DNA from: a virus
Length of the DNA: 25,002 nt
Direction: 5' to 3' (one strand)
IMG/VR virus record: IMGVR_UViG_3300044621_000652
Location: 1-25,002 of that record
Shown here: positions 2,217 to 18,426 of the stretch, piece after piece
Numbering within the stretch: the first letter of the stretch is position 1
Layout of the letters: each line of letters opens with the position of its first letter
Notes under the pieces: generated by a model
The model's database searches: none
Told to the model about the DNA's origin: nothing
Seen by the model: only the letters and a program-made list of their open reading frames with translations
Made by a program: the position numbers and the translations under genes

Positions 2217-4681
2217 GCGACATTGTCTGGACACCCGAACAAGGAACGCAGGCTCAGGACCCTGAGGTGCGAGGCCTGTCGTGGAACAACCTCCTTGCTT
2301 CAGACGAGTCCTATTCGACTAAGTGGCGGACGGCGAGCGACATCCGGATCACTCCGGACAAGGCCCTTCAGTCGACTGTCATTCTCAGTTGCTGCCGCAT
2401 CATCGCGGAGACGATCGCCACCCTGCCCCTCTGCGTCTATCGCCGCAAGAGCGACGGGTCTCAGGAACTCGCCTACGACGTCCCGCTCTACAAGGTCCTG
2501 CACTTTGCTCCGAATTCGTGGCAGACCAAGTTCGAGTTCATCGAGCAGGTCTGCATGCACATCGGGCTGTGGGGCAATTCCTACAGCCAGATCATCTCCG
2601 GAAGGTATGGGGCTGTCACCGAGCTACAGAACCTGCATCCGAGCCGCATGCAGGTCGAGCGTCTGGAGAATGGCCGACTGCGTTACAGCTACACGAATCC
2701 GCAGACCGGCAGGCTGGAGCGGTACACGCAGGATCAGATCATGCACGTCCGGTGGACTCCGGAGCCGGACGGCATCAAGGGCATGGTTCCGATCGAGGTG
2801 AGCAGGGACGCCATCGCGCTCGCGAGGAGTCTGGAGATTCATGCGTCCAAATTTTGGGCAAACTCTGCCCGCCCCGGCGTGGTTCTCACGACGGATGGAA
2901 GCCTGTCGGCAGAGTCCGCCGAGCGGCTGCGGGACAACTGGGAGAGGATTCATAGAGGCAGCGAGCGAGCTTATAAAACTGCGATCCTCACCAACGGACT
3001 GAAGGCCACTGAGCTTGGGTTCACGAATGAGGCCAGCCAGTTTGTCGACTCACGGAAGTATCAGTGTGAGGAGCTATGTCGGGTCTACCGCATCCCTATG
3101 CATTTGGTGCAGGGAACGAGCGGAGGGAACCTTGAGGTGCAGGGTCAGGAGTTCGTCACCTATACGCTCATGCCGTGGCTGGAGCGGATTCAGGCTGCCA
3201 TCTCGCGGAGCCTGATCTACAACGACGACCTCCTCTTCGCGGCGTTCGACGTTCGTGGCCTTCTGCGGTCCGACAGCAACAGCCGCGCGGGCTACTACTC
3301 AACGATGATGGGCCTCGGAATTTATTCCGTGAACGAGGTGAGAAGCCTCGAAGGTCTGGCCCCTCTCGGCCCAGAGGCCGACAAGCACTTCGTCGCGATG
3401 AACATGCAGACGCTGGAGGACGCGGCGAAGCCGAAGCCAGACCCGTCTCAGATGCCCGGCGCTCCTCCGCCAGCAGCGGGAGGGGTGCCGAGCCTGCCGG
3501 GAGTCAAGACAGGGGAGGCCCCGAAGGAGTCTGAGAAGGGCGAGGCATCGACCAAGAAGCCCGAGATGGAGGACGCGATCGAGGAGTCGTCCGCCGACTG
3601 GGAGGACGCGATCGAGGGCCGGGCCTTCTGTGCGACAGGCGAGGGCGGAGGGATCGACAACTCGTGTGGAGACGATGAAGGCGGCTCGTCATCCCCCGCC
3701 GCAGCAAACGGCAAGGGCGGCTCCTGCCCCGCTCCGTGCCACGAGCCGGACGTTAACTCCGACAAGAACAAGGACGGCGTCACGGACGCTGCTCGCGTTG
3801 GCTGCCCTGCGTTCGAGGTTCCGCCCCCTCCGGCCGTAGGCCGAGTACCCAACTTGGACCCATACCAGAGGTCGGTCGAGGACGCATTCATCTCGCACTT
3901 CGAGTCGGACCCCGAGAAGGTCTCGTCTCAGTTCCGCGATCTTGTCGTCGCTCAGGGCGATCCGCCGACGTTCGGGACAGACGACGCCAAGTGCCTGACC
4001 TCGGCGTGGTCGCATCCGGACCCAGAAGTCCGTGCAGAGAACCGCGCGACTCTGAACACGATCCTGCACCAGACAGCCAACGCGATCGCCAAGAGGGCGT
4101 TTCTCCAGCACCTCGACACGCTCAAAGAGGGCGACGAGATCATGGTGACCGTCGGCGGGTGCGGAGCGGGCAAGGGCTTCGCCCTCAAGAACGTACCGGC
4201 CGCGATGGAGATGAAGTCCCGCGCGAAGGTCGTGTGGGACAGCGCTGGTGACCAGAACGCGACCGAGAACCCGTGGATTCTCAAGGAGGCCGAGAGTCGT
4301 GGCCTCAAGGTCAACTACGTGTTCGTTCACGCAGACCCGCAAACGCAGTGGGCAGACCCGGATCGGGGAGTCGTGAAGCGAGCGAGCGATCCGAAAGACG
4401 GCAGGATGGTTGACGCCAAGGTCTTCGCTGACAGCTACGCGATCGGCGCGAAGAACCACCACGCATTTCATCAGGCCAACAAGGACAACAAGTCTGCATC
4501 GTTCGTGTTTCTCGACAATACATCGGGGCCGAAGCAGGTGGCTGGAGTGCCTAAGGAGGCGCTGTCGCTCGACGCCGACAAGCTGGCGGCTTTCGCCGAG
4601 AGCAAGGTTCAGGAGTCTTCGGCTCCGCCGAGAGTGAAGGCGGGCGCTCTTCTGGGCAGGCGGATATGGGGCAAGAAATGA
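2213..4681 (+). CDS. HK97-type portal protein fused to a zeta-toxin-like P-loop domain
   Basis: Residues 1 to about 400 are a Phage_portal-family protein, the dodecameric DNA channel at the capsid vertex. Landmarks are LQSTVILSCCRIIAETIATLPL, WGNSYSQI, ARPGVVLTTDG and RVYRIPMHLVQG. A proline-rich linker follows, then copy 1 of the Cys motif (residues about 458-485). The unusual C-terminus (about 550-822) holds MVTVGGCGAGKGFALKNV, a Walker A loop near residue 650. It continues with an Asp in VVWDSAGDQN, NYVFVHADPQ, GRMVDAKVF and FVFLDNT, an order that matches zeta-toxin/P-loop kinases. Standard HK97 portals are about 400-450 residues, so roughly 370 residues are extra. The GTG start overlaps the terL stop by 4 bases (GTGA). 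Kinase activity and substrate are inference. Confidence 0.85.
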   Translation: MSDIVWTPEQGTQAQDPEVRGLSWNNLLASDESYSTKWRTASDIRITPDKALQSTVILSCCRIIAETIATLPLCVYRRKSDGSQELAYDVPLYKVLHFAPNSWQTKFEFIEQVCMHIGLWGNSYSQIISGRYGAVTELQNLHPSRMQVERLENGRLRYSYTNPQTGRLERYTQDQIMHVRWTPEPDGIKGMVPIEVSRDAIALARSLEIHASKFWANSARPGVVLTTDGSLSAESAERLRDNWERIHRGSERAYKTAILTNGLKATELGFTNEASQFVDSRKYQCEELCRVYRIPMHLVQGTSGGNLEVQGQEFVTYTLMPWLERIQAAISRSLIYNDDLLFAAFDVRGLLRSDSNSRAGYYSTMMGLGIYSVNEVRSLEGLAPLGPEADKHFVAMNMQTLEDAAKPKPDPSQMPGAPPPAAGGVPSLPGVKTGEAPKESEKGEASTKKPEMEDAIEESSADWEDAIEGRAFCATGEGGGIDNSCGDDEGGSSSPAAANGKGGSCPAPCHEPDVNSDKNKDGVTDAARVGCPAFEVPPPPAVGRVPNLDPYQRSVEDAFISHFESDPEKVSSQFRDLVVAQGDPPTFGTDDAKCLTSAWSHPDPEVRAENRATLNTILHQTANAIAKRAFLQHLDTLKEGDEIMVTVGGCGAGKGFALKNVPAAMEMKSRAKVVWDSAGDQNATENPWILKEAESRGLKVNYVFVHADPQTQWADPDRGVVKRASDPKDGRMVDAKVFADSYAIGAKNHHAFHQANKDNKSASFVFLDNTSGPKQVAGVPKEALSLDADKLAAFAESKVQESSAPPRVKAGALLGRRIWGKK
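3584..3667 (+). repeat. Cys motif copy 1 (portal), CxTGxGGGxDNSC type
   Basis: The copy encodes ESSADWEDAIEGRAFC followed by ATGEGGGIDNSC; the Cys-to-Cys part is 3629-3667. It sits at the boundary between the portal domain linker and the zeta-like domain. Its DNA is almost the same as copy 2 at 4792-4875. Confidence 0.8.
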
Positions 4682-7554
4682 AGACTCAGACTCTCTCCGG
4701 CTGGTGGGCAGAAGACGCCGAACGAGTCAACAAGCTCGCCGAGGCCGCGAAGAAGATTGCCTGCAAGATTCCTGCCCGCAAGGGGAAGGGAGAGTCGTCC
4801 GCCGACTGGGAGGACGCCGTCGAGGGCCGGGCCTACTGCCCGACAGGCGAAGGCAACGGCACCGACAACTCGTGCAGCAGCGCGGGCAGTAAGGCGTCCA
4901 AGGCCGAAGCGCTCGCCAAGTCGATGCCCAAAGAGATCAGCGCGGAGGTGGCCCGCGAGAGGCTGCCGGGCTACAAGCCGTTCCGGCCGATTGGAGGCTC
5001 GAAGAACTCGGACCATATCGGTCAGGCGACCGACGACGAGTTGCGTCAGTTTCTGAAGGACTCGAAGGACCCGGACAAGAGCCAGAAAGGCAAGGTCGGC
5101 GGAAGCCGTGACCTGCCAGAGGGAACTCCAGTAGCTCTTCGGATCGACATTCCTGCTTTCAACAAATCCGAGGGGAAGACTTACGCCGTCACTGTCCATG
5201 AGGGCAAGCCGCAGGGCGGTAAGAAGGCGTTCGGCAAGGCTCTCGGATACGACTCGCTCGCGAAGCTGAAGGGCGACGTTCGGTTCGACTCCGAAGACGA
5301 GGGCCGCGCGACGGTTGTCGCGGCTGGCGGAGGCAAGACTCCTCTGGCAGTTGTCAACGGAAAGTTTGATCCCAGCAGGAACATCCCGGACGACATCGAC
5401 TCTTGGACTCCGGTCGGATACGACCCAGCAAAGTCAACGTATTTCTACGACAAGCGAACCGGAGACGAGATCGTCGGCGGCACTGACGCGGTCTCCGTCG
5501 GGAACACTGTGTTCACTCGCGACCCTGTTCGCGGGCCTCGCAACGTAAAGACCCGCTACAGGTCCGAGGACCGTGCCGACGAGGAGTTCAGCGACCCTTC
5601 GCCACCCATGCACAACGTCGGACAGCCTGTCCTTTCGGACGATGCCGACGATGACGCGGCCAAGTCGGCATCGATCGTGCAGTCTGCGATCGGTCGCCCG
5701 GACAGGCTTGTGAAGGTGTATCGCCCATTCAGGAAAGGCCAGTCCCTGAAGCGGATTTCGTCAGGCGACATGGTGACGATCAGCCGTGTTCAGGCTGCAA
5801 AGCACGGGAAAAAGCACTTTGGTGGAGACTTCGAGATCGTCTCCAAGGTGGTTCAGGCAAAGAGCCTCTACAGCGGTTCCGACGGCCTGCACGAGTGGGG
5901 CTACTCCAGTTTCGAGGACGAGTCCAGAGACCACGACGCCGCTCAGGCGGAGAGCCGCGACGGAGCGGACTGTGGAAGGGACGACGGCGGGCGGTTCGGC
6001 AGCGACAACAAGTGCCAAAAGCAAGGCGACGGAACTGGTGACAGCCAGCCTAGTGACAGAAAGCCTGCGACCACTCAGGAGGTTGTCGACGAAATTCTCC
6101 GCAGCATTGAGGAGACTGGCGGTTTCTCAGTTCATCCGATGACGGCAGAAAGCCCAACGACGGGCTTCATGTGTGCGACCGTCCCTAATGCCGAAAAGAT
6201 TATTGACAGCAAGGAAGAGGTCACTGAAAAGCTCGTCGACGAGTACTTTGCTCAGCACAAGGACTACCTTTCTTCGCGGCCTAAGCTACACTTGGGTGGT
6301 TGGATCAACGCTGAGGAGGGCAAGGTTTACCTCGACCTTTCAGAGCGGTTCGAGACTCAGGAAGAGGCTGAGAAAGCTGCGATCGAACACAAGCAAATCG
6401 CGATCTGGGACGTAAAAAACAAGAAAGAGATCAGGATCAATCATGGCGACAAGCGATCAGCCGAAGAAAATGGTGAGGTTCGACTTTCCTCCCGGAGCGT
6501 CGTCGAAGGAGATCGCAGCGGCGATCGAGGCGGCGAGGAAGAAAGCGGTCCGCGAGTTCGCGGAAGCGAAGGCGAAAGCCGAGCAGCAGGCGACTGCGGA
6601 CGAGTAGAGGGCGGGCGGTTCGGTCCGCAGAATGACTGCGCGTCCGAAGACGGTCTCTCACAGGACGTCGCGTCGGCGGCTGTCCTAAAAGCCTCTGAGT
6701 CGGCTGCCGGGTTCGGGGTTGCGACCGACCCGATGAAGCTCCTCAAGCATGTCGGCAAGTCTCGCCAGTACGAGATCATTGGCGCTGTCGCCAACAACTT
6801 CGGCCGCAACGCATCCGACAACGCCGAGGCAGCCGTCGAGATGGTATCCAAGTCTGGCTACAGCGGGCGTGACGTCGAGGCCGTCGGTGAGTACGTGACG
6901 CGAGCTTCCCGCACTGTTGCAGGCCGCGCGGCAGCGAGCGCCGCAGTCGGTGTGCTGCTCGCGGCTAAGCATGCCTGCCCAGAGGTGGAGTTTGAAGTAA
7001 GCCACAACGGCGAGGTCGAGCAGCACCTCGGCTCTGCGAACATGAGCGTCAGCAAGACTCCTGCCTACTATCGGATTCTGCAAAACAGGACCGTGGTGAA
7101 CCTCGACGCGCAGATGGCTGGGGTTGCCATGACTGCCGATCAACCTGATTGGTTTAGCACGACCAGCCTTGCTCACGCAGTCGCTCACGAGGACGGTCAC
7201 AAGATTCACTTCGAGGCTATTCGCGATCACCTTGGCATTCCGAGAGACCTAGAACTACAGGCCGGAATGCCTGAATTCGACACGCTCGACAGGTTCCTGT
7301 CCGAACTTCACGGCAAGGCCGTGTTGGCTGTTCAGCCAAGCGCAGATTCGATCCTTGGCACGGAACTGAACGACGAAATCCGCGCATTGTCTGGATACGC
7401 GGTCAACAGCGCGCAACCGCGAGAGGCCGTGGCTGAGTACTACGCTAGGGTTCGCCTTGGCGGGAAGCGTTCTGCGGCTCTTGATCGCTTCATGGAACTG
7501 ATGATGTTCCCGATGGACCGCCTCAACATTCCAAAGCAGGGGAAAAAGAAGTGA
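4678..7554 (+). CDS. Polyvalent phage protein: ADP-ribosyltransferase-like, conserved phage domain and zinc metallopeptidase
   Basis: This 958-residue protein starts at the ATGA that overlaps the portal stop; an in-frame ATG at 4666 is the alternative. In order: Cys motif copy 2 (39-66); a phage-protein region with LPEGTPVALRIDIPAF and YFYDKRTGDEIV..VGNTVFTRDP (about 140-285); an ADP-ribosyltransferase-like stretch with KVYRPF, SSGDMVTISRVQAAKHG and HEWGY (about 345-412); motif copy 3 (431-446); a domain beginning GGFSVHP with LGGWINAEEGKVYLDLSE and KQIAIWDV (about 480-587), seen in many phage cargo-like proteins but without known function; motif copy 4 (639-654); and a gluzincin-like domain with HEDGH (837-841) and a likely third ligand in AVAEYY (E920). 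Around 6443-6607 its codon use is abnormal, see the overlapping ORF. No signal peptide is seen. Toxic or host-directed activity is inference. Confidence 0.72.
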   Translation: MKTQTLSGWWAEDAERVNKLAEAAKKIACKIPARKGKGESSADWEDAVEGRAYCPTGEGNGTDNSCSSAGSKASKAEALAKSMPKEISAEVARERLPGYKPFRPIGGSKNSDHIGQATDDELRQFLKDSKDPDKSQKGKVGGSRDLPEGTPVALRIDIPAFNKSEGKTYAVTVHEGKPQGGKKAFGKALGYDSLAKLKGDVRFDSEDEGRATVVAAGGGKTPLAVVNGKFDPSRNIPDDIDSWTPVGYDPAKSTYFYDKRTGDEIVGGTDAVSVGNTVFTRDPVRGPRNVKTRYRSEDRADEEFSDPSPPMHNVGQPVLSDDADDDAAKSASIVQSAIGRPDRLVKVYRPFRKGQSLKRISSGDMVTISRVQAAKHGKKHFGGDFEIVSKVVQAKSLYSGSDGLHEWGYSSFEDESRDHDAAQAESRDGADCGRDDGGRFGSDNKCQKQGDGTGDSQPSDRKPATTQEVVDEILRSIEETGGFSVHPMTAESPTTGFMCATVPNAEKIIDSKEEVTEKLVDEYFAQHKDYLSSRPKLHLGGWINAEEGKVYLDLSERFETQEEAEKAAIEHKQIAIWDVKNKKEIRINHGDKRSAEENGEVRLSSRSVVEGDRSGDRGGEEESGPRVRGSEGESRAAGDCGRVEGGRFGPQNDCASEDGLSQDVASAAVLKASESAAGFGVATDPMKLLKHVGKSRQYEIIGAVANNFGRNASDNAEAAVEMVSKSGYSGRDVEAVGEYVTRASRTVAGRAAASAAVGVLLAAKHACPEVEFEVSHNGEVEQHLGSANMSVSKTPAYYRILQNRTVVNLDAQMAGVAMTADQPDWFSTTSLAHAVAHEDGHKIHFEAIRDHLGIPRDLELQAGMPEFDTLDRFLSELHGKAVLAVQPSADSILGTELNDEIRALSGYAVNSAQPREAVAEYYARVRLGGKRSAALDRFMELMMFPMDRLNIPKQGKKK
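4792..4875 (+). repeat. Cys motif copy 2, CxTGxGGGxDNSC type
   Basis: The copy encodes ESSADWEDAVEGRAYC followed by PTGEGNGTDNSC and lies near the N-terminus of the polyvalent protein. The DNA closely matches copy 1 in the portal gene. Confidence 0.8.
5968..6015 (+). repeat. Cys motif copy 3, DCGR type
   Basis: The copy encodes DCGRDDGGRFGSDNKC and separates the ADP-ribosyltransferase-like region from the GGFSVHP domain. Confidence 0.8.
6443..6607 (+). CDS. Possible small overlapping gene, 54 residues, function unknown
   Basis: An ATG at 6443, with AGGA about six bases upstream, opens a 54-codon frame ending at TAG 6605-6607, in the +1 frame relative to the large ORF. The product starts MATSDQPKKMVRFDFPPG and continues as an Ala/Glu/Lys-rich helix (SKEIAAAIEAARKKAVREF), so it looks like a real compact protein. 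By hand count, 42 of 53 codons after the ATG end in G or C, against about 26 of 54 for the host frame over the same stretch. The host frame here gives low-complexity Gly/Arg/Glu/Ser sequence. It may be a translated overlapping gene, or a once-separate gene now read through. I do not recognise its family. Confidence 0.5.
   Translation: MATSDQPKKMVRFDFPPGASSKEIAAAIEAARKKAVREFAEAKAKAEQQATADE
6592..6639 (+). repeat. Cys motif copy 4, DCGR type
   Basis: The copy encodes DCGRVEGGRFGPQNDC and precedes the metallopeptidase domain. Its first third overlaps the end of the 54-residue ORF in another frame. Confidence 0.8.
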
Positions 7555-10500
7555 TTCTCGCGCCAATCGAAGGAGAGACTGAGGAAGAGTTCCTGCTGCG
7601 ATACAACGCGATCGCGAAGTCGCTCGGCTACCCGCAGTCTCCGGAATCGGACTGGCTCTCCGATGAGGCCGACAGCGAGTGGCGTGGTTTCGGAGACCAA
7701 GAGAGCCGGTCTGCGTCGCCGCAGGCTGAGAGCCGCGAGGCTGCCGACTGCGGCCGTGACGAGAAGGGGCAGTTCGGCGAAAAAAACAAGTGCCAAGAGG
7801 ATGGGGATGGGTCCTCTGGAGACACCGCGACGGCCGCGAAGGGTTCCAAGAAGTCCGAAGAGGACATTCCGCTTGGCAACGTCCGTCGGCAGGACGTCAT
7901 GCTTCGCGGCGGCAGGTCCGTTGTCGTCATTGACAGGGAGGCGACCGAGCGGGCCAAGCAGGATCGCGTAGACAACCCGAAGCCGCCGGATTCACACCCC
8001 GCCAGCACGTCTGACCTGTACGGACGGACGTTTGTCCGGCGTGACGACCCGAAGAAGCCAAACAAGATCACCAGCCACGACCCGGTGTTCACGGACGAAG
8101 ACCTCGCTCAGAATGACATGTACGTGGCTCACGACGCTGCTGGACGGTTCCTTTCCGGCAGGCACGAGGACGAGAGACGAGCCGCTGGCGGGGAGGGTCC
8201 GGGTGCCGTCATCGACACTCGGAGAGACCTCACGCCAGAGCAGTTCGACTACGTTGTGTCCGCGCTCAAGGAGGACGTCGACAGGGCTTACGAGGAGGGC
8301 CGCAATCCCGGCTTCTACAGCACCGACATCGCCGAGTGCATGGACACCATGTCGAGCATGTACCCTGAGCTTCGGGACGAGTCCGAGGCGAAGAGGCTCG
8401 GGACGACGCCGGAAGATGCGTCCTTCGTATTCACGATGATCACGGCGATCACGAGTAATGGAACGGACCCTGCCCTCAACCTTGAGTCGGCCGATCGAAT
8501 CTATCGCCTGTATCGGGAGCATGGCTCGGTCCGGACCAACGATGACCTGATGGGCGGCCCACGGGCCGCAAAGATCAGGGAGTCTCTCGGGCGATTCCAA
8601 GACATGATCGACGAGTTCGGGGAGTCCCGCGTTCGTTCGCTCATGTCCGGCGTCACTCATGCCTCCTCGATCAATACCGCGATGAAGAAGCTCGCGAGGA
8701 GGTCGAAGGAGATCGGCGGTAGTTGGGGCGACAGGGGTGTCGGAGACTCTGAGCTACCGGACGAGGTCGTCCCCGTCGCGGCCGTGTTCGGCCCGAAGAT
8801 CGGCTCCTTCTTTGCGAACCTGAGCGGCAGGCATCAATTCCTGACGATGGACCGATGGCTGATGCGTTCTGTCGGCCGCGTGACCGGAGAACTCTTGTCG
8901 CGGTCGTCTCCCGAGTCGGCTAACAAGCAGGCTAACTTGGCGCTGAAGACTCTCAGGGCGATCAAGGGCAAGGAGGGTCTGTTCGGTGTCGACAAGCCAC
9001 CTCTCTCGCTCAAGAGGCAGGACGTCATCAGGTCCCTTGAGCTACAGGCGAGGTCCGGGATCGTCGAGGAGAGCGGCGCAGCGTACGAGTGGGCAAAAGC
9101 TGCTGAGAGGGCCTACAACAAAGTTCCGCGAGGGGTCGACAAGGATGGCAAGCCGAAGGGCAGCTACGGCGATCACCCTGACCCTCAGGTGCGGGCAGCG
9201 CACAAGGCCGGAAACGCGATGGCGAAATCGCTTGTCCACGAGCAGCAAGACCCACGGTCCGCTAGGGCAAGGCGAGTGCTTCGAGAAGTGTTTCGCGAGG
9301 TGGCGAGGAGAGTGGAGGCCGACAGCCCAGACTCCCGCGAAGGCGTTCAGGTCAGCGAGATTCAGGCTGTCCTCTGGCAGTACGAGCAGAATCTTTGGAA
9401 GAAACTTGGAGCGAAGACGAAGATCGAGGGAGACTCGCTGTACTCTGCGGCGGCGAAGTCGCTGAAGGCTAGCCGCGACTCTGGAAACTCGCCGAAGGCG
9501 CTCACTCCGCAAAAGTCTCGCAGGCCCAAGTCTGTTCGGTCGGAGGACAGGGCAGGCGAGTCTGACGACGGCGTCGAGACGGATTACCCGAACCAGTCCG
9601 GACAAGACTTGTGGGACGACGAAATCGAGACAGCAGGCGTCGACGTCCAGAAGCTCCTGAAGGCAGTTTCCGAAGACATCGTCGCCGAGTCCCGCTCCTG
9701 CGTAAAGGCCGAGGGCGGCAGGTTCGGACCCGGCAACGACTGTGCGGCTGATGGAGGCTCGACCGCCGTCTCTGATTCGCCGAGGGCTCGCGTTGACAAT
9801 AGCTGGAAGAAGATGCCGGAGGCAGTGCAGTGGACGGGCGACGACCTGAAGTCCTCGCCTCCGGCGAAGTCTCTCAGTGGCGTGAAGTCCGTCACGATGG
9901 CGGACGCGGAGCTTGTTGGAGACTCGCTCAAGGTTGTCGGCGTGACCCTCGATCAGGCGGCGAAGACGCTCGCGCCCGTCGGCAACAAGGACGCATCGGT
10001 TCAGATTCTGCACGGAACGCTCACTGAGGCTGCCCGGTATCTTTCTGACCCGAGCCTTCCGAGAGAGCCGTCCGCATCAGTGACGTTCTCCAGTCAGGTC
10101 TCGGTGGCAGGAATTGCGGACGCCGTCCAGACTGCCGCCACCTTGACGCGGACGGACGAGGAAGAGCTTCTGATGACCTACTCGATGTTCGCCGTCAAGC
10201 CAGAGGCGCAGCAGAACGCGAAGTTCGCGGTCGCTCGCGAGATGATGCGAGGAGTTGTCGACAGCATCTCGCAGGCCGAGAAGCTCGGCGTCAGCGACAT
10301 TATGATGCATGCCGCAGGCAGCGAGGCGAGCGAGCAGTTCAAGGGGTACAGGCTGTGGCCGAAGCTCGGGTTCGACGGCATCATCGACCGGCACATCATC
10401 ACTCCGACGTGGTCGGTTCGTCTTGGGTTCTTCGAGCCTTACGGAAGCAGTCTTCCGGACTCGATTCTTTCCCCGAGAGCCCAGCAGGAAAAGAGGTCTG

Positions 10501-11813: not shown

Positions 11814-14301
11814 CCTCACCCCGCCGCAGGCCGCTCGCAAGGAAGCGGAGCGAGCCTTGGCGTGGAGGAGGGAGTTCGGACGAGGCGCGACCGCCGTCGG
11901 CATTGCCCGCGCGAGAGACATCAAGAACGGCGTCCGGCTTTCCCCCTCGACAGTGAGGAGGATGAAGGCTTTCTTCGATCGCCACGAGATCGACTCCAAG
12001 GCCGAGGGCTTCCGCCCCGGCGAGAAGGGCTACCCATCGAACGGCCGCATCGCGTGGGCCGCGTGGGGAGGCGATGCCGGAAGAAGGTGGGCTGAGAAAA
12101 TCGTTCGCCGCCTGAACGCCGCTCGTAGTACGGACAAGCGTTCCGCTACGATCGATAGAAAGAGGGCCACAATGACGAATATCGAGCGAAGGTATTTCGG
12201 TTCTTTCGGCGCGGCCGAGCAGTCCGAAGACGGAATGCTGTCCGTCGAGGAGAGAGCCGAAGAAGGCGGGGTCAAGAAGACCTACGTTGTCGGCTACGCT
12301 GCAAAATTTGGAATGGACTCGGTTTTGTTGGGGGATTTTGTTGAGAGGATTGCCCCGACTGCTTTCGACATCCTGAAGGAAGGCAAGGACCTGTCTGGCA
12401 AACCGATCCAGACTCGCGGCCTTTTCAACCACGACCCGAACCACCTCCTCGGTCGCTACCCGTCGACGATGAAGCTGAGCGTCGACGAGAAGGGTCTCCG
12501 CTACGAAATTCTTCTGCCTGAGACCCGGAAGGACATCGCCGAGATGGTTCGCAGAGGCGATCTGAGGGGAAGCTCGTTCAGCTTCATCGTGGCCGAGTCG
12601 GGCGGCGAGAAGTGGCACTACGAGAAGGGCCAGTCGATTAGAACCGTCCTAAAGATAAAAACTTTGGTCGACTGCGGACCCGTCACTTACCCGGCCTACG
12701 ATTCGTCCTCCTGCGCGATCGCGCAGCGGAGCTACCAGCAGTTCGCCGCGAAGAGAAGCGAGCGAATGGAGAAGAGAAACTCGCTGATGAGCGTTGTCAC
12801 GGCGGAGATCGCCAAGACTCAGGAGTTCATTGCTGAGCGGAGAGGCGGCGACTGTGGACGAGATGCTGACGGCAAGTTCTCTTCGGGGAACGCCTGCGCG
12901 TCGGGTTCCGGATCGGGGTCGTCCAAGCCCAACGCCGTCATTAAGAAGACGACCGGAGGAGACTCTATCAAGTCTTCTGCCAAGAAGATCATCTCCGACA
13001 CTGCCTCCGGAGCCACGCTCGGCGCGGCTATTCACGCCGGGTACAGCGCAGCAGCCGGTGCGGCCGTCGGGGCCTCGATCGGCGGCGTTCCGGGCGCGAT
13101 CGGCGGCGCGGTGGTCGGCGCGGCCACCGGAGCCGGTGCAGGCGCGGTCATCGGCGGCGCTTCCGCAGGCGGAGTCTCCGCGTCAACGGAGGTCGGCTCG
13201 AAGGTAGCCTCTGCCATATCGCCATCCACTAAGCAGAACAACCTCATCAACCTCGGCGGCGCCTTGGCGGGTTTCGTAGCTGGCGGCATCCCCGGAGCGA
13301 TGGCAGGCGCTGCCATCACTTCGATCGGTCAGGGTGTGGCTAATAAGATTTCCAGCGCGGGCAAGGCGAGGTTTGAGTCTGCCAAGAAGGGGGTCCGCGT
13401 CAGCGACTCGCAACTCAAGGCTGCCCAGAAGATTCTGGACGGCAACTCGCGAGGCAAGGCGAGCGGGAAGGTCAATGCGTGGACGAACAACGACGGAAAG
13501 GTTCACATGCATGACGACTCCGGGAAGAACCTTGCCTCCGTCTCGAAGGTAGGGAATGCCACGAACGCTCACGTTCACGTTGACTGGGCTGTCGCCGGTA
13601 CGGATGCCCCCAAGCTCGTTTCCAAGGTCGGGAAGGCTCTCGGCACCAATCGAGTCTCGACCGAGGTGCCTGACAACGACGCTGGCGACGTCATGGGGAA
13701 GGCTCTCGCTAAGGCAGGCTTCAGGGAGGACAAGAACTCGACAGGAGACGCCAGCGGCTCCCGCGTCTACGTGAAGACCCTCTCGAAGCCAAAGGTCGCC
13801 AAGCGGTTCGACGAGCTTGTCGTGTACTTCACCGAGAGGAGAGACTGCGGCCGGGACGACGACGGGAAGTTTTCGTCGGGCAATGACTGCGGCTCAACGC
13901 CTTCAAGCTCAGGGAAGTACATGGAGTGGAAGAAGGGCAAGGACCACAAGGACAAGGAGAAGGAGAAGTCCGCTCAGGAGTTTCTCGACAGGGCTCGCGA
14001 GGAGCAGTTGAGCAAGGGCGGCAAGGACGGCGGCAAGTCCGACGACGGTGGCGGCGTCCAGACATGGAGCAAGGGCGAGCATTTCCCGTGGACTGCCAAG
14101 CAGGTCGGCAGCGACGAGGGCTACGTTCAGGGGCAGCATCCTGACGGCAGCAAGACCGCGAAGTATCCGTTCAAGGGCGGAAACTACGCCGATGCCTACA
14201 AGAAGGTCTCGGAAGAGATCAAGGGGAAGCCAAAGAAACGGTCTGTCGACCCTCGCCAAGTCATCGAAGACACTCTGAGGTTTCTCAAGGACCGTCGCTG
14301 A
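11785..14301 (+). CDS. HK97-family prohead protease with N-terminal phage domain and long cargo-like C-terminus
   Basis: In this 838-residue protein, residues about 10-110 are a common phage domain (LSPSTVRRMKAFFDRHEID, GYPSNGRIAWAAWGGDAGR). Residues about 130-330 are a U35/S78-type prohead protease that would cut capsid and scaffold parts inside the prohead: YVVGYAAKF, LFNHDPNH with probable catalytic His216, and RGDLRGSSFSF with Ser263/264. Motif copies 8 (356-371) and 9 (687-702) flank a Gly/Ala-rich glycine-zipper stretch (about 418-515) that may insert in membranes, then a segment with WTNNDGKVHMHDDSG and HVHVDW. A charged Lys/Asp-rich tail ends the protein. Usual proteases of this family are about 200-250 residues. 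The ATG at 11785 overlaps the previous gene by 29 bases; a well-placed internal ATG lies at 12172. The extra parts may be carried into the capsid, which is inference. Confidence 0.82.
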   Translation: MAKKKASEIDLTPPQAARKEAERALAWRREFGRGATAVGIARARDIKNGVRLSPSTVRRMKAFFDRHEIDSKAEGFRPGEKGYPSNGRIAWAAWGGDAGRRWAEKIVRRLNAARSTDKRSATIDRKRATMTNIERRYFGSFGAAEQSEDGMLSVEERAEEGGVKKTYVVGYAAKFGMDSVLLGDFVERIAPTAFDILKEGKDLSGKPIQTRGLFNHDPNHLLGRYPSTMKLSVDEKGLRYEILLPETRKDIAEMVRRGDLRGSSFSFIVAESGGEKWHYEKGQSIRTVLKIKTLVDCGPVTYPAYDSSSCAIAQRSYQQFAAKRSERMEKRNSLMSVVTAEIAKTQEFIAERRGGDCGRDADGKFSSGNACASGSGSGSSKPNAVIKKTTGGDSIKSSAKKIISDTASGATLGAAIHAGYSAAAGAAVGASIGGVPGAIGGAVVGAATGAGAGAVIGGASAGGVSASTEVGSKVASAISPSTKQNNLINLGGALAGFVAGGIPGAMAGAAITSIGQGVANKISSAGKARFESAKKGVRVSDSQLKAAQKILDGNSRGKASGKVNAWTNNDGKVHMHDDSGKNLASVSKVGNATNAHVHVDWAVAGTDAPKLVSKVGKALGTNRVSTEVPDNDAGDVMGKALAKAGFREDKNSTGDASGSRVYVKTLSKPKVAKRFDELVVYFTERRDCGRDDDGKFSSGNDCGSTPSSSGKYMEWKKGKDHKDKEKEKSAQEFLDRAREEQLSKGGKDGGKSDDGGGVQTWSKGEHFPWTAKQVGSDEGYVQGQHPDGSKTAKYPFKGGNYADAYKKVSEEIKGKPKKRSVDPRQVIEDTLRFLKDRR
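12161..12174 (+). promoter_or_regulatory. Internal start for a protease-only product
   Basis: AGAGGG lies just upstream of an in-frame ATG at 12172, exactly where a normal prohead protease would begin (MTNIERRYFGSF). The N-terminal phage domain and the protease may therefore also be made as separate products. Confidence 0.4.
12850..12897 (+). repeat. Cys motif copy 8, DCGR type
   Basis: The copy encodes DCGRDADGKFSSGNAC directly after the protease domain and its trailing helix (TQEFIAERRGG). Confidence 0.8.
13843..13890 (+). repeat. Cys motif copy 9, DCGR type
   Basis: The copy encodes DCGRDDDGKFSSGNDC, preceded by a helix ending TERR. It separates the glycine-zipper module from the charged tail of the protease protein. 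Confidence 0.8.
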
Positions 14302-15275
14302 TGAGCAGCCTTTCGACGGACGCGAAGATAGCGAGCCTTGAGGCGTTCCTTCAGTCTCGTGCCTTTTGCCCCACCGGCATCGGCGGAGGCGTGGATAATT
14401 CGTGCGGCTCTTCCGGTCTGTCTACTGCGAAGTCGATTCCTAAAGAGGCCGCATCCGTCGCAACGCTGGCAAAGGGCGGTGCCTCTCGCACGGAGATTCA
14501 GGCCTCGATTGAGAAGGCGATCATCGGTGAGTCTAGTTGGCTCAGCGGCTACAAGCCGGGGCCGGTCTTGCCGTCGGAAATGTGCCGCGCTCTCGGCATC
14601 GCAATCGAGAACGAGGATTCACTCGACGAGATGATGGCGTCTTCTTGGCACTTCGAGCGGAGCGGGATCGCGGCGGCTATTGCGCAGATTGCTGCCGTTC
14701 GTTCGCTGGACCCGTCGATGCTACGGGGCGTCACCGTTCGGATAGACACGGCGAAAACAATTTCCGTGGAGACCGGAGAAAAATGGACTGAGTTTATCGA
14801 CGTTGCCGGAACCTACTTCCCTGCGACTGACACCGTCTACGTCTTAGCAGGGACTGTTGACTCTGATCCAAAAGACGTCGCGAGGCAGTTCGAGAGCGGC
14901 TTCCTCTCAACGCCAAGCGACATACACATAATCGTTCACGAGTTAGCCCACAAGGGCCACTACAAAGAGATCGAGCGGAAGACCGGCCTTAGATCGCCAA
15001 GGGGCGGAAGCGAGAAAGCGCAAGAGAGCTATCTCAGGGACGCCCAGCAGGCAGCCTATTCGAGCCTTACTTCAGAAACCTTGGCCGACCCTGAGTGGAA
15101 GGCTCGCTTTATTGGCAAAGCTCGCGGCGTTTCTTTTTATGCGACCACCGACCCGTTTGAGTTGGTCGCCGAGTATACAGCGGCGGTTCGGCTCGGCCAG
15201 AAGCAAAACGACGAAGACCTCGATCGCTTTTGCCGAGCCATGCTCGCTCCAGTCCCCCGGAGGGCAAGGCGATGA
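14301..15275 (+). CDS. Zinc metallopeptidase-like phage protein
   Basis: This 324-residue protein has an ATG overlapping the previous stop by one base (TGATG). Motif copy 10 is near the N-terminus (residues 23-35), preceded by ASLEAFLQSR as in the other copies. The C-terminal half holds HELAH (213-217) within IIVHELAHKGHY, and a probable third zinc ligand in LVAEYTAAVRLG (E291), the gluzincin arrangement. The same two elements (HExxH, then AEYxAxVRLG) are found in the C-terminal domain of the 958-residue protein at 7186-7460, so the two are paralogues. No signal peptide or transmembrane segment is seen. The substrate is unknown; it could cut host proteins or phage cargo. Zinc protease is recognised from motif, activity is inference. 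Confidence 0.7.
   Translation: MSSLSTDAKIASLEAFLQSRAFCPTGIGGGVDNSCGSSGLSTAKSIPKEAASVATLAKGGASRTEIQASIEKAIIGESSWLSGYKPGPVLPSEMCRALGIAIENEDSLDEMMASSWHFERSGIAAAIAQIAAVRSLDPSMLRGVTVRIDTAKTISVETGEKWTEFIDVAGTYFPATDTVYVLAGTVDSDPKDVARQFESGFLSTPSDIHIIVHELAHKGHYKEIERKTGLRSPRGGSEKAQESYLRDAQQAAYSSLTSETLADPEWKARFIGKARGVSFYATTDPFELVAEYTAAVRLGQKQNDEDLDRFCRAMLAPVPRRARR
14367..14405 (+). repeat. Cys motif copy 10, CxTGxGGGxDNSC type
   Basis: The copy encodes CPTGIGGGVDNSC near the N-terminus of the metallopeptidase protein. Confidence 0.8.
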
Positions 15276-16507
15276 CTCAAATCATTCCGAAGACACCCGG
15301 CGTTACCCTCGGTCAGCTTAGAAGCGGGCTCTCGGCTCTTGTCGCTCAGCCGCCGCCGGATTGGTGGGTGAACGAATTTGCCGACTCGTCGGCCGCGATG
15401 ACGGGCGCGCAGATGGCGAGCCCCGTCGACTTCTCGCAGGCCCGCTACGCATCGCTGATGGCGTTCGCGCAGTCTCGCGGAGCCGACTGCGGCAGGGACT
15501 CTGACGGCAAGTTCGGGTCCGGAAACAAGTGCCAAGAGGACGCAGGTCAGGGGGAATCAGGCCCTTCTCTGCACCTTCTCGCGGGGAGAGACGCCGAGGC
15601 CCCTCAGGCAAAGATGAAGAGCGGAGACCGCGAGGTAACGGTAGTCGACAGGAAGGACGTTGGAACTCCTGACTATCTCGACGAGATCGAGTGCCAAGGC
15701 CGCGACTGTGGACTCGAAGTGACGTTCCAGTTGGCGAAGCAGTTGCAGCCAGACAGCGAAATCAAAGACGACTGGAGTCCTCTTGACGCATACGTAGGGC
15801 CGGGTGCCGGATACTTCACTGGTCACGAAGGCTCACTCGGCACGAGCGCCGAAAGCAGCATTGACTTCCACGGCATGGACTACGGCGCTCTCGACGACCA
15901 CTTGGCTTCCGAACTTATGTCACGGAAGCAGAGGCAGGCCGAGGCCGAGTGGAATGCTCTTAGCGACGATGAGAAGGAAGCTGTTTCGATAAAGGCATTG
16001 TACGGCGAAGGAGCGACGGTCGCCGACGAAGACGACAGGGATATCCTTCTGGAGGCCGGGAAAAAGGAGTGGCTCCAGCAGAAGGACTACGACATCCAGT
16101 CCGAGGTCCGGGAGATGAGAGAGAAGGCGAGAACTGAGGCTGTTGCGGCGATGAGAAGAGACCTTGAAGCCGCTGTTGCCGCAGACACGATCGAGTGCTG
16201 CCTTCAGTTGTATCGCGGCCTTGAAGTCGATCCACACGACATTGACCAGATGATCTCTGACGGGTACGTGGTACACGGTGGAGTGAATAGCTGGACGACC
16301 TCGCGTGGCGTGGCGAGAAGTTTCGGTGCTAACAGACTCCTGCTCGTCACGAGAAAGCCTCGCGTCGGACATGTTTTCTCGTCAAACGCCCACGAAGAAA
16401 TGGAGGTCATTCGCCCTCCGTCTCGCATGAGAATTCTTGGAGTCGTGAGAACGAAGACTGGCACCGTGCTGCACGTCGACGAGGACGAGGACTACAAGGG
16501 GCTGTAA
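15272..16507 (+). CDS. Mono-ADP-ribosyltransferase-like phage protein
   Basis: This 411-residue protein starts at the ATGA overlapping the previous stop, with GGAGG 8 bases upstream (15259-15263); an in-frame ATG at 15230 is less likely. Motif copy 11 is at residues 72-87, after ARYASLMAFAQSR. The middle is acidic and helical (SRKQRQAEAEWNALSDDEK, AVAAMRRDLEAAVAAD). The C-terminal domain carries the arginine-specific ADP-ribosyltransferase signature: LYRGL with R315, SWTTSRGVARSF with T342-T343-S344 at the STS position, and HEEMEVI with E376-x-E378. A GYVVHGGVNS strand precedes the STS part. This is the R-STS-ExE class that includes bacterial mono-ADP-ribosylating toxins and phage enzymes. 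All key residues are present, so activity is likely. The target and the time of action are unknown. Confidence 0.78.
   Translation: MTQIIPKTPGVTLGQLRSGLSALVAQPPPDWWVNEFADSSAAMTGAQMASPVDFSQARYASLMAFAQSRGADCGRDSDGKFGSGNKCQEDAGQGESGPSLHLLAGRDAEAPQAKMKSGDREVTVVDRKDVGTPDYLDEIECQGRDCGLEVTFQLAKQLQPDSEIKDDWSPLDAYVGPGAGYFTGHEGSLGTSAESSIDFHGMDYGALDDHLASELMSRKQRQAEAEWNALSDDEKEAVSIKALYGEGATVADEDDRDILLEAGKKEWLQQKDYDIQSEVREMREKARTEAVAAMRRDLEAAVAADTIECCLQLYRGLEVDPHDIDQMISDGYVVHGGVNSWTTSRGVARSFGANRLLLVTRKPRVGHVFSSNAHEEMEVIRPPSRMRILGVVRTKTGTVLHVDEDEDYKGL
15485..15532 (+). repeat. Cys motif copy 11, DCGR type
   Basis: The copy encodes DCGRDSDGKFGSGNKC. The surrounding 15461-15517 DNA differs from 16663-16719 (copy 12) at only about three of 57 bases. 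Confidence 0.85.
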
Positions 16508-18426
16508 TGTCGACACAGCTACAGCGGCTCGTTGGCGGAAAGGACTCGCTTGGAAGCCCAAGCTGGGAGAAGCCTCAGCACATACTGGACGTGATCGCAA
16601 AGAAAAATAGCGCGGCCAGTCCCATCCGCCGTTCGCTCGACGCCCGATACGCAGGCCTTCTCGCGTTCGCGCAGTCTCGCGGAGCCGACTGCGGCCGGGA
16701 CTCTGACGGTAAGTTCGGCGTTGGTAATACGTGCCGAATCGGCATCAACATCAATGATTCAGAACAAGACTTCACGGGCCAGATTCTATCTGGTGCAAAG
16801 ACCACGGAGACTCGCGTCACCGACTCCCTGAGGCCGTATGTCGGCAAAACCGTCGGCATAGTAAGGACCGGCAAGGGAAAGGCCACTCTCGTCGGCACGA
16901 TGAAAGTTGGCGAGCCGAAGTTCTACAAATCCAAAAAAGAGTTCGACAAGGACTTTGAGAAGCATCGAGTCGGCGAGGGGTCGTCGCACTACATCGGCCA
17001 CGAGGGAAAGTACGGTTACCCGCTCTCAGAGGTAAAGAAGGTCAGGCCGGTTGTCCTCGACTCGAAGGGGATAGTGGCGAGAGTCGTTCACAAGTCAAAA
17101 CGTGACATGACCGTCGTTTTTGACTTGTCTGGCGAGTCGCCGGAGCATCCCAAAGACGAAGAGCCGAGGTCGGCGGACTGCGGCCGGGACGATGACGGCA
17201 AGTTCGGCGGGGGCAACAAGTGCGCGAACGCAGACGGAGACCCGCGTCCGTCCGGAGGCAGGCTTCGGCACAGCGACGGAACGCAGACCAACGTCGCGAG
17301 GAAGCTGTACCAGATGGGGACCAGCGAGGAGAAGCTAGGGGACCTTGTTCGCGGGCTCGGAGGAGACCCGAAGGCGACGACCGTGAAGTCGAATCCGCCG
17401 AACTTAAACGTCACAGTGAAGAGCAGCAAGGGTGAGACGCTCTACCACGCGGATATCGGCTACTACCGCGTCCGCGTCTACGCAGTCGCGAAAAAGGTCG
17501 GCGACGAAGTGGTCGAGAACATCAAGCAGATTGCAAAGGGCGTCTTCCCTTCCAAGCCGACGAGCGGCAAGAAGAACGCCTCGGTGACCGTCTCGGTCTA
17601 CGGTGATCCGGAAGAGTTCGGGAAGTGGAAGTCTGAAAACGCGGAGAAGCAGAAGGCGATGAAAGACAAATACCAGTTCTCGCCGTATCTGGCCCCGAAC
17701 GAGAAGCCGATCGAGTGGAAGTCTGACGCCACTCTGGCGAGCCTGCTGGCGTTCGCCGCCTCCCGGAACTGCGGAAACGGTCCGGGAGGCTTCCAGCCGG
17801 GAAACACATGCGCCAGCGGCAAGCTCGCCGATGCCGCCAAGGGTGCCGCCAAGGGTGCGGTGTCTGGAGCCGCCGCAGCGGCTGGCGGGCTGGCCCCCTA
17901 CCCCCCCTATGTCGCGAAGGGCGCTGCCGTCGGGGCTGTGGCGGGAGCCGTGAAGGGCCTGTACGACAACAAGATGCGGCCCACGAGGGTGATGGAAAAG
18001 ATCGCCGAGGTTGGGTCGACAGAGAAGAAAATCTCATCTCTCGTGAAGAAGCTCGGCGGCACTCCGTCGTCGTCGGCCGACGTCAGTCGCGGGAAGTTGC
18101 AACTCACCGTCCGGAACGAGGCCGGGAAAAAGATTTTCCACGTCCAGATCGGCAAGGAGGACGTCGTCATCTACCCGAGGTCCGCTACCGGGACCCTCAG
18201 CGACAAGCAGATCGCGAGAGTGAGGCAGGTGGCGAAGGAGTCTGTCCCGAAGAATGTTTCCATCGAGGTGAAATCGTCCTCGAAGGCATACATCGGCAGG
18301 CTCGTTAGGAATGGTTTCAAGGTGGCTGCGGATGCTGCCGGGAAGCTGATAGCGACTGCTGTCTTCGCCCCGGTGGCCGACACGGTTGTCGGCGAGGCTA
18401 CTTACTCGTTGAAGAAGAAAAGGTGA
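16507..18426 (+). CDS. ASCH-like domain protein with duplicated domain and Gly/Ala hydrophobic segment
   Basis: This 639-residue protein begins at an ATG sharing one base with the previous stop (TAATG). In order: motif copy 12 (61-76); an ASCH/PUA-like domain (about 77-200) with FTGQILSGAKTTETR, YVGKTVGIVRTGKG and GYPLSEVKKVRPV; motif copy 13 (224-239); a first copy of an unknown domain (about 262-378; TSEEKLGDLVRGLGG, LNVTVKSSKGETLYHADIG); motif copy 14 (421-435); a Gly/Ala-rich hydrophobic stretch (about 440-485); a second copy of the same domain (about 495-595; STEKKISSLVKKLGG, LQLTVRNEAGKKIFHVQIG); and a basic C-terminus ending KKKR. ASCH domains generally bind RNA and some cut it. The hydrophobic part resembles the one in the protease protein and could aid membrane passage, which is inference. 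Confidence 0.62.
   Translation: MSTQLQRLVGGKDSLGSPSWEKPQHILDVIAKKNSAASPIRRSLDARYAGLLAFAQSRGADCGRDSDGKFGVGNTCRIGININDSEQDFTGQILSGAKTTETRVTDSLRPYVGKTVGIVRTGKGKATLVGTMKVGEPKFYKSKKEFDKDFEKHRVGEGSSHYIGHEGKYGYPLSEVKKVRPVVLDSKGIVARVVHKSKRDMTVVFDLSGESPEHPKDEEPRSADCGRDDDGKFGGGNKCANADGDPRPSGGRLRHSDGTQTNVARKLYQMGTSEEKLGDLVRGLGGDPKATTVKSNPPNLNVTVKSSKGETLYHADIGYYRVRVYAVAKKVGDEVVENIKQIAKGVFPSKPTSGKKNASVTVSVYGDPEEFGKWKSENAEKQKAMKDKYQFSPYLAPNEKPIEWKSDATLASLLAFAASRNCGNGPGGFQPGNTCASGKLADAAKGAAKGAVSGAAAAAGGLAPYPPYVAKGAAVGAVAGAVKGLYDNKMRPTRVMEKIAEVGSTEKKISSLVKKLGGTPSSSADVSRGKLQLTVRNEAGKKIFHVQIGKEDVVIYPRSATGTLSDKQIARVRQVAKESVPKNVSIEVKSSSKAYIGRLVRNGFKVAADAAGKLIATAVFAPVADTVVGEATYSLKKKR
16687..16734 (+). repeat. Cys motif copy 12, DCGR type
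   Basis: The copy encodes DCGRDSDGKFGVGNTC after AGLLAFAQSRGA, just before the ASCH-like domain. Confidence 0.85.
17176..17223 (+). repeat. Cys motif copy 13, DCGR type
   Basis: The copy encodes DCGRDDDGKFGGGNKC between the ASCH-like domain and the first unknown repeated domain. Confidence 0.85.
17767..17811 (+). repeat. Cys motif copy 14, shortened
   Basis: The copy encodes NCGNGPGGFQPGNTC after ASLLAFAASR. It is intermediate between the two motif types and precedes the Gly/Ala hydrophobic segment. Confidence 0.75.

What the first reader, a model, noticed from the sequence alone, without database searches (positions are those of the whole stretch)
3584..17811. Fourteen copies of a Cys-bracketed motif in the portal, protease and all effector-like proteins
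Seen: consensus DCGRDxDGKFxxGNxC (10 copies including degenerate ones), a CxTGxGGGxDNSC form (3 copies) and one Cys-less PRENDGKF copy. Nearly all follow a short helix ending in SR, ERR or EGR, and nearly all lie between domains. Known: PRDxxGRF-like motifs occur in many phage head-associated proteins with unclear role. Inference: the motif is a shared tag or linker. It may be a docking site on the capsid interior, a prohead protease cleavage site, or a disulfide- or metal-closed knob. Its presence in both portal and protease links the cargo proteins to head assembly.
Basis: partly seen in the sequence, partly recalled or inferred. Interest (0 to 1): 0.92.

Follow-up and report, generated by a model that had tools for sequence, protein, structure and literature searches.

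The report
Predicted cut tag on phage cargo
A short, Cys-bracketed protein tag sits in front of nearly every cargo domain in the head genes of this phage and dozens of relatives, and it directly follows what looks like the cut site of the phage's own head-maturation protease, so it is probably the device by which a phage packs a chain of effector proteins into its capsid and cuts it into single proteins.

Summary
In detail: 14 copies in seven consecutive genes between terminase and major capsid protein (MCP), none elsewhere in the window. Relatives hold several hundred more, in three interchangeable length forms, on the head-gene strand. In five relatives with 44-94 kb contigs all lie in the ~16 kb before MCP. 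Relatives without cargo genes almost never have the motif (3 of 41); those with cargo all do (23 of 23). Codons are randomised, so selection acts on the protein.

The key is the residue just before the motif. 69% of copies have E-x-R within 5 residues (background 2.9%), matching the conserved V-E-S-R|A at the MCP maturation site. Other phage lineages use N, Y/F, K or L there, constant within a phage (424 of 430 pairs), and N and Y/F lineages carry N|A or Y|A in their MCPs. Cys-less PRDxxGRF copies follow the same rule.

Best explanation: helix, prohead-protease site and Cys-closed cap form one cassette that packages cargo and then releases it. Cleavage and packaging are predicted, not shown. 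The Cys role is open. New variant of a known kind.

The parts
2213..4681 (+). Portal gene with C-terminal cargo extension (P-loop, kinase-like); predicted cut after R470
   Evidence: PF04860 E=2e-93, residues 56-381; extension holds GCGAGKG by eye
3620..3667 (+). Copy 1: EGR|AF + CATGEGGGIDNSC (T form), portal
4666..7554 (+). Cargo polyprotein E1 (three motif copies)
4828..4875 (+). Copy 2: EGR|AY + CPTGEGNGTDNSC (T form), E1
5956..6015 (+). Copy 3: ESR|DGAD + CGRDDGGRFGSDNKC, E1
6580..6639 (+). Copy 4: ESR|AAGD + CGRVEGGRFGPQNDC, E1
7551..11813 (+). Cargo polyprotein E2 (three copies, one Cys-less)
7734..7793 (+). Copy 5: ESR|EAAD + CGRDEKGQFGEKNKC, E2
9693..9743 (+). Copy 6: ESR|S + CVKAEGGRFGPGNDC, E2
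10731..10772 (+). Copy 7: EFR|FDPNQ + PRENDGKF (Cys-less), E2
11785..14301 (+). Prohead protease (S78, residues 154-321) with two C-terminal cargo modules
   Evidence: PF04586 E=1.6e-30
12841..12897 (+). Copy 8: ERR|GGD + CGRDADGKFSSGNAC, protease
13840..13890 (+). Copy 9: ERR|D + CGRDDDGKFSSGNDC, protease
14301..15275 (+). Cargo E3: 20-residue propeptide, cap, then HEXXH (zincin-like) domain
   Evidence: AlphaFold pLDDT 81, helix 6-19, motif disordered; invariant H213 E214 H217
14358..14405 (+). Copy 10: QSR|AF + CPTGIGGGVDNSC (T form), E3
15272..16507 (+). Cargo E4: propeptide, cap, ART-like C-terminal domain
   Evidence: weak Foldseek top hit ADP-ribosyltransferase Vis 4xzj, E=0.09; model pLDDT 56
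15476..15532 (+). Copy 11: QSR|GAD + CGRDSDGKFGSGNKC, E4
16507..18426 (+). Cargo polyprotein E5 (three copies; ASCH-like module, glycine-zipper module)
   Evidence: weak ASCH hit E=0.09, below the family's cut-off
16678..16734 (+). Copy 12: QSR|GAD + CGRDSDGKFGVGNTC, E5
17167..17223 (+). Copy 13: EPR|SAD + CGRDDDGKFGGGNKC, E5
17764..17811 (+). Copy 14: ASR|N + CGNGPGGFQPGNTC (G form), E5
18725..20227 (+). Major capsid protein with N-terminal delta (scaffold) domain
   Evidence: PF05065 E=3.3e-31
19268..19282 (+). MCP maturation site E182-S-R184|A-Q: the reference for the E-x-R| rule
   Evidence: R 116/116, A 113/116, E or D 110/116 in distinct MCPs; aligned with RcGTA EGK|ALN and 9gyi ETR|ALS; R184 codon starts at 19274

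Best explanation
The motif is the second half of a head-cargo processing cassette. The cassette consists of (1) a short helix that ends in E-x-R or (Q/A)-S-R, (2) a cut site for the phage's own S78 prohead protease directly after that Arg, (3) the 13-15-residue Cys-bracketed cap, and (4) a Gly-rich spacer that leads into the cargo domain. A cassette stands before nearly each cargo domain. Cargo enters the prohead either because it is fused to the portal or the protease, or, in stand-alone cargo, through the N-terminal helix acting like a T4 capsid-targeting propeptide. During maturation the protease that trims the MCP delta domain after V-E-S-R also cuts the polyproteins after each E-x-R. This leaves separate effector domains inside the capsid, each starting with a Cys-closed cap, ready to be ejected with the DNA. 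Shown by sequence: the cassette, its invariance, its confinement to head-cargo genes, its exchange between unrelated domains, and the match to the MCP site. Inferred: packaging, cleavage, ejection. Unknown: whether the Cys pair makes a disulfide or binds metal, and whether the cap also docks.
For: Location: in five relatives with 44-94 kb contigs all Cys copies lie in the ~16 kb upstream of MCP on its strand, none elsewhere. With/without test: compact portal-to-MCP intervals have a motif in 3 of 41 cases, expanded ones in 23 of 23; Spearman 0.81. Marks module borders: 25 of 26 downstream domain families occur behind two or more upstream families, and K, G and T forms replace each other before the same domain. 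Protein-level selection: random codons; both Cys in 405 of 405 copies under Cys-blind models. Cut site: E-x-R within 5 residues of the first Cys in 270 of 391 copies against 2.9% of background 7-mers; a matrix made from MCP sites alone is enriched 24-fold before motifs. MCP V-E-[SAH]-R|A is near-invariant at the place that aligns with the start of the HK97 core. Lineage code: the residue before the motif is R, N, K, L or Y/F by phage, same within a locus in 424 of 430 pairs against 284 expected. N-lineage MCPs have [LFAW]N|[AS] at the start of the core fold; Y/F-lineage MCPs have [YF]|AGATG. Cys-less copies follow the same code in 7 of 7 cases. Companion helix R[YIH]ASLxAFxxxR: 56 of 62 hits precede the motif. 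Cargo in other lineages is typical phage-delivered effectors: ART-PolyVal, ADP-ribosyltransferase, MuF, RelA/SpoT, Topo IB. Precedents: T4 CTS propeptide cut by gp21 (PMC9026906); one protease signature shared by MCP, portal and ejection proteins in SPN3US (PMC10052503).
Against: No cleavage or virion data exist for these uncultured phages. About 12% of copies have no Arg within 5 residues. In the K-lineage (L226, L276) the MCP shows no matching site, and in the L lineage and G019 no MCP was found. N|A and Y|A in MCPs could be fold features rather than cuts, and the Y/F relatives were partly found with a pattern containing that site. MCP would be cut without having the cap, so the cap is not needed for cutting as such. 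E-R-R is also conserved at the usual start of S78 proteases, so E-x-R need not always be a site. Packaging itself is inferred.
Confidence: 0.62

Rival explanations
1. Docking tag without cleavage: helix and Cys cap bind a head protein (scaffold domain of MCP, portal or protease), for example by sharing a zinc ion with the C-x-C of the MCP delta domain, and so recruit cargo into the prohead.
For: MCP delta domain has C-x-C in the K-form, multi-copy phages and S-x-E or similar elsewhere; no phage without C-x-C has a K form. Cys pair invariant. Lineage-specific residues also suit a docking partner.
Against: C-x-C is probably one phylogenetic event, and T-form copies occur in phages without it. 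Portal and protease already belong to the head and need no tag. Docking does not explain why the pre-motif residue equals the residue at the MCP core boundary in three unrelated head types.
Confidence: 0.2
2. Passive disulfide- or metal-closed spacer that keeps cargo domains apart; the E-x-R is just the C-cap of a charged helix.
For: AlphaFold shows a disordered linker after a helix; Gly-rich downstream stretch.
Against: Spacers do not need invariant residues, three interchangeable exact forms, a lineage-specific residue shared by all copies of a phage, or confinement to head cargo.
Confidence: 0.08
3. The site is cut by the cargo's own zincin metallopeptidases (E1, E3), as proposed for polyvalent proteins, and not by the prohead protease.
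For: Zincin-like HEXXH modules are present; Iyer et al. proposed such processing (PMC5512222).
Against: The site matches the MCP maturation site, which the S78 protease is expected to cut. Not tested: whether motif-bearing phages without any zincin exist.
Confidence: 0.06
4. Evolutionary joint only: a short homology that lets effector domains recombine, with no role in the particle.
For: Extensive module shuffling at the motif.
Against: DNA of the copies is not conserved beyond the amino-acid constraint (codon tests), so it is a poor recombination target; the protein sequence is kept instead.
Confidence: 0.03

Closest known systems
T4 capsid targeting sequence (CTS) of IPI-III and Alt, cut by gp21
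   Same: Short N-terminal propeptide on unrelated head-internal effectors; ends in a prohead-protease site whose signature is shared with other head proteins (PMC9026906).
   Different: T4 uses an N-terminal CTS and no Cys cap. Here cassettes are repeated inside polyproteins and inside portal and protease, with a conserved cap after the cut. T4 gp21 cuts after Glu, here the predicted residue is Arg (or N, Y/F, K, L by lineage).
Polyvalent proteins (Iyer et al. 2017)
   Same: Multidomain phage proteins with ART, zincin, MuF, portal and kinase domains, encoded in the head region (PMC5512222).
   Different: That paper's searched text reports no such inter-domain motif and proposes zincin self-processing; here a defined cassette and the prohead protease are proposed.
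MuF polymorphic toxins (Jamet et al. 2017)
   Same: Head protein fused to exchangeable effector domains (PMC5576092). In the N lineage the motif occurs in MuF-containing chains.
   Different: The window has no MuF domain; carriers are portal, protease and free cargo. The words motif, linker and cleavage do not occur in the MuF paper.
SPN3US/phiKZ head proteolysis and P1 DarA/DarB
   Same: One protease signature (A-x-E) cuts MCP, portal, protease and ejection proteins (PMC10052503); P1 DarB has an N-terminal packaging signal (PMC9024508), and DarA and MCP are cut by Pro (PMC12810830).
   Different: Propeptides there are mostly long; no repeated Cys cassette is reported.

Membership tests
T4-type capsid targeting sequence | Short helical N-terminal propeptide on otherwise unrelated cargo | tested here: met
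   E3 propeptide of 20 residues; helix R[YIH]ASLxAFxxxR before the motif in 56 of 62 hits
T4-type capsid targeting sequence | Propeptide ends in a site that matches the phage's prohead-protease signature | tested here: met
   E-x-R enrichment and MCP-derived matrix; sequence match only
T4-type capsid targeting sequence | Propeptide is sufficient to target a protein into the prohead and is removed there | not testable with these tools
   Needs packaging and N-terminus experiments
T4-type capsid targeting sequence | Strictly N-terminal, one per protein | tested here: not met
   Up to three copies per protein in the window and more in relatives, most internal. So it may work like a CTS but is not filed as one
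Phage polyvalent proteins | Several domains of the known repertoire in one chain, encoded with head genes | tested here: met
   ART-PolyVal, ADPrib_exo_Tox, MuF, RelA_SpoT in motif chains of relatives. Window domains are only weakly assignable
Phage polyvalent proteins | Packaged in the capsid and injected | not testable with these tools
   Inferred from position and fusions
MuF polymorphic toxins | MuF domain in the motif-bearing chain | tested here: not met
   No PF04233 in window proteins; present in N-lineage relatives
HK97-type S78 prohead protease with cleaved MCP | S78 domain, HK97-fold MCP with N-terminal delta domain, basic residue at the start of the N-arm | tested here: met
   PF04586 and PF05065; VESR|A invariant Arg; HK97 cut is K103|S104 (PMC10275583). 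The cut itself is not shown
Cys-closed knob (disulfide or zinc) | Cys pair always present together | tested here: met
   405 of 405 distinct copies under Cys-blind models; one copy outside that set seems to have lost its second Cys (L111)
Cys-closed knob (disulfide or zinc) | Bond or metal actually formed | not testable with these tools
   AlphaFold leaves the motif disordered

The most novel reading that the evidence does not exclude
Tailed phages of several unrelated head types share one general cargo code: every head-delivered effector domain is preceded by the lineage's own prohead-protease residue followed by a cap, either Cys-bracketed (CxTGxGGGxDNSC, CGRDxDGKFxxGNxC) or the common Cys-less PRDxxGRF. 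Effector polyproteins and their cut points could then be read from sequence alone, and the unexplained PRDxxGRF motif in portals and minor head proteins would have a function.
Probability: 0.45. Interest if true: 0.88.

Novelty: new variant of a known kind. Interest (0 to 1): 0.78.

Why it matters
How phage polyvalent proteins get into the head, and whether they are cut there, is largely open. This cassette gives residue-level predictions: 14 cut points in the window and several hundred in relatives. It gives a marker to find head-delivered effectors of unknown fold, and a candidate fusion tag for loading proteins into capsids. It also ties the recurrent PRDxxGRF motif of portal and minor head proteins to a testable role.

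Tried and rejected
Cut inside the motif (GRD/GKF): MCP has no such sequence, and the only part of the cassette shared with MCP is E-x-R upstream; rejected as first choice. Recent DNA repeats or recombination target: rejected by codon tests. EF-hand or Excalibur-type calcium loop: by eye the spacing does not fit (Gly at position 4 of DxDG, no DxDxDG); not pursued. MCP C-x-C as the obligatory partner: weakened, since T-form phages lack C-x-C; kept as rival. Conserved ERR in the protease as an autocleavage site: not used, because this is also the normal start of S78 proteases (plus general knowledge). Isolated phages: short tblastn queries with the Cys forms found nothing in 50,697 records (low sensitivity); a Cys-less query hit the portals of Xanthomonas phage PhiXhv-5 and a Helicobacter prophage. 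Host: one weak hint, a Planctomycetota MAG contig with a motif-less relative; host left open. First module clustering failed by single linkage and was replaced. First Pfam and PHROGs scans had a frame error and were repeated. A total-Cys comparison was not used because the comparison set contains spurious ORFs.
Full report
WHAT IS THERE. The window is a 25 kb viral record. Gene order is TerL (987-2216), portal (2213-4681), E1, E2, S78 prohead protease (11785-14301), E3, E4, E5, MCP (18725-20227). Fourteen motif copies lie at nt 3629-17811 in all seven genes from portal to E5, none in MCP or elsewhere. There are three length forms: K (15 residues, CGRDxDGKFxxGNxC; nine copies), G (14, CGxGxGGFxxGNTC; one), T (13, CxTGxGxGxDNSC; three), and one Cys-less copy (PRENDGKF).

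IS IT REAL. Scans with the protease and the MCP brought 130 loci. They hold 203 distinct copies, all on the head-gene strand. The regular expressions used there require the Cys, so their invariance was tested separately with models blind at the Cys columns: 405 of 405 distinct copies have both; one 18-residue-type copy with a lost second Cys was seen outside that set (L111). Codons encoding the same residue agree between the nine K copies of the window no more than random synonymous choice (189 against 181 expected of 343 pairs). Other genomes are near expectation, some a little above. The motif is therefore old and kept by selection on the protein. The K pattern occurs in 57 stretches of 2.9 million viral contigs, all traceable to contigs of this head type.

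WHERE IT SITS. In relatives with long contigs (G001 94 kb, G002 90 kb, G003 76 kb, G004 56 kb, G006 46 kb) all Cys copies lie in the ~16 kb before MCP and nowhere else. Relatives divide into compact genomes, where portal, protease and MCP follow each other, and expanded ones with cargo genes between. Compact: 3 of 41 have a motif. Expanded: 23 of 23. The count rises with the length of the inserted stretch (Spearman 0.81). Some loci were collected by motif pattern, which favours the motif class; among those found only by protease or MCP (L006-L135) all listed compact ones have none and all listed expanded ones have at least one. Downstream domains cluster into families, and 25 of 26 families with four or more members follow at least two different upstream modules; K, G and T forms stand before the same family (D1: T16, K9, G1; D2: T16, K8; D0: K33, G29, T2). 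So the three forms are equivalents, and the motif marks the border before an exchangeable module.

WHAT PRECEDES IT. T forms have Arg at -3 in all 76 counted copies and Glu at -5 in 80%. Over 391 copies E-x-R lies within five residues of the first Cys in 270 (69%), against 2.9% of background 7-mers; Arg within five in 344. The MCPs of the same phages, including motif-less ones, have V-E-[SAH]-R|A-Q with Arg in 116 of 116 and Ala in 113. This lies just before the HK97 core, and aligns with EGK|ALN of the RcGTA capsid and ETR|ALS of 9gyi. HK97 itself is cut at K103|S104 in the N-arm (PMC10275583). A scoring matrix made only from MCP sites picks the motif-adjacent position 24 times more often than background at 6 bits. 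In the window all 14 copies have the Arg, ten as E-x-R; the predicted fragments are pieces of about 150-650 residues plus short N-terminal propeptides of 20-69.

A LINEAGE CODE. The T form also occurs in phages with unrelated head genes. In G014, G017, G023, G031 and L340, L342, L343 (DUF6260 capsid, DUF2213-like protease or MuF where identified) the residue before [AV]-F-C is always Asn. In G028/G029 (Mu-type portal) it is Leu, in G019 Lys or Arg, in L223, L224, L242 and G030 Tyr, Phe or His. Within a locus the residue is the same in 424 of 430 pairs; shuffling gives 284, at most 333. Overlapping or related contigs are not independent in this count; the non-R loci alone give 50 of 56 against 22.7, at most 35. 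The N-lineage capsids have V-[LFA]-N|A-x-x-LRKEEW (W-N-S in one of seven) where the encapsulin-like core begins. The Y/F-lineage capsids have [YF]|AGATG near the N-terminus. The K-lineage capsid of L226 has no such site, and for G019 and G028 no capsid was found. Cys-less copies in these same phages keep the code: R|FDPNQPRENDGKF, K|AFNPNQPRDEAGRF, N|YEGQPRDPDGKF, N|YDEDQPRDEAGRF, N|AEWEEEDHPRDEAGRF, F|EWDESKHPREPAG, Y|AEWNPEAHPR. The exact position was chosen by eye within a window of some five residues, so this count is supportive, not a strict test.

THE HELIX. Stand-alone cargo often starts with a helix of the type R[YIH]ASLxAFxxxR. Of 62 distinct hits of this pattern 56 are followed by a Cys motif within 40 residues; the rest appear to be cut by contig ends or followed by a variant cap. 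E3 begins MSSLSTDAKIASLEAFLQSR|AFC, a 20-residue propeptide in size and place like the T4 CTS (10-19 residues, PMC9026906). AlphaFold gives helix 6-19, a disordered motif and a confident domain (pLDDT 81); for E4 the model is poor (56).

THE CARGO. Window cargo is only weakly assignable: zincin-like HEXXH in E3 (weak Foldseek hits to zincin metallopeptidases, E 0.09), ART-like E4 (4xzj, E 0.09), ASCH-like E5 (below cut-off). In related and other-lineage chains Pfam is clear: ART-PolyVal 3.5e-21 and 2.2e-24, ADPrib_exo_Tox 2e-46, MuF 5.6e-18, RelA_SpoT 1.2e-8, topoisomerase IB 6e-24. This is the polyvalent-protein and MuF-toxin repertoire (PMC5512222, PMC5576092). I searched both texts for motif, linker, cleavage and related words and found no mention of this motif; the library lacks many subscription papers, so novelty is judged within it.

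MECHANISM. Best explanation (0.62): a packaging-and-processing cassette, as stated above. Shown: anatomy, invariance, confinement, exchangeability, agreement of the pre-motif residue with the MCP core boundary in three head types. Inferred: cutting, packaging, ejection. Fusing cargo to portal and protease would guarantee entry, and cutting would release it; this is inference. The role of the Cys pair is open. The MCP C-x-C (residues 79-81), present in the K-form phages and absent elsewhere, is a lead for a docking or metal-sharing rival (0.2), but most likely one phylogenetic event.

AN ASIDE WORTH ITS OWN STUDY. The TerL gene of the window is interrupted inside the P-loop by a 46-nt hairpin that shifts the frame (nt 821-866). 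The same element is found in 29 distinct sequences, with inserts of 43-48 nt in all three length classes between two Gly codons of KKN-G|G-KST. It resembles the translational bypass of T4 gene 60; see Noticed in passing.

Noticed in passing
window 818-869 (insert 821-866); also L136, L156, L194, L218, L225, L254, L256, L283, L363-L390 and others: TerL is interrupted inside the Walker A P-loop (EVPKKN-G|insert|G-KSTLLSG) by a near-perfect hairpin of about 18 bp with a 5-nt loop (window MFE -43, z -5). 29 distinct sequences, insert 43-48 nt in all three length classes modulo 3, Gly codons before/after mostly GGC/GGC (21 of 30 rows, one row a chance hit); 64 relatives lack it. Frame must be restored by translational bypass (as in T4 gene 60) or RNA removal.
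   Followed up: partly
L025 6690-6780, L035 700-800: A different 20-bp hairpin interrupts TerL a few codons upstream of the P-loop in two motif-less relatives (MFE -49 and -53), so hairpin insertion near this site seems to recur.
   Followed up: partly
window 18959-18967 (MCP residues 79-81): C-x-C in the MCP delta domain of the K-form phages, S-x-E or similar in the others; possible docking or metal partner of the Cys caps.
   Followed up: partly
protease C-terminal module about 12950-13320; E5 about 17812-17960: Glycine-zipper stretches (GAAVGASIGGVPGAIGGAVVGAATG type) follow motifs; the E5-type module is the commonest cargo family (64 members). Candidate membrane or channel-forming ejection module.
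   Followed up: no
window 11800-12125: The protease carries an N-terminal domain (residues 5-113, phrog_2859, unknown function) before S78, conserved in the relatives.
   Followed up: no
window 23480-23881 and 23898-24347: Tandem, diverged paralogues (24% identity, E 9e-5), perhaps tail-tube type.
   Followed up: partly
L308 9599-14593: Motif-bearing chain with topoisomerase IB, a weak MuF hit and a weak intein-splicing domain hit (E 1e-4).
   Followed up: no
L324-L328 (G030): The only long contig seen with motif copies in two distant places (16-19 kb and 72 kb of 81 kb).
   Followed up: no
L346 3862-3918, L347 5001-5057: Cys-less form (DAQW[DE]E[NS]KHPRA[DE]NGQFGAG) in the portal C-terminus of Xanthomonas phage PhiXhv-5 and in an HI1409-family (portal-type) protein of a Helicobacter prophage.
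   Followed up: partly
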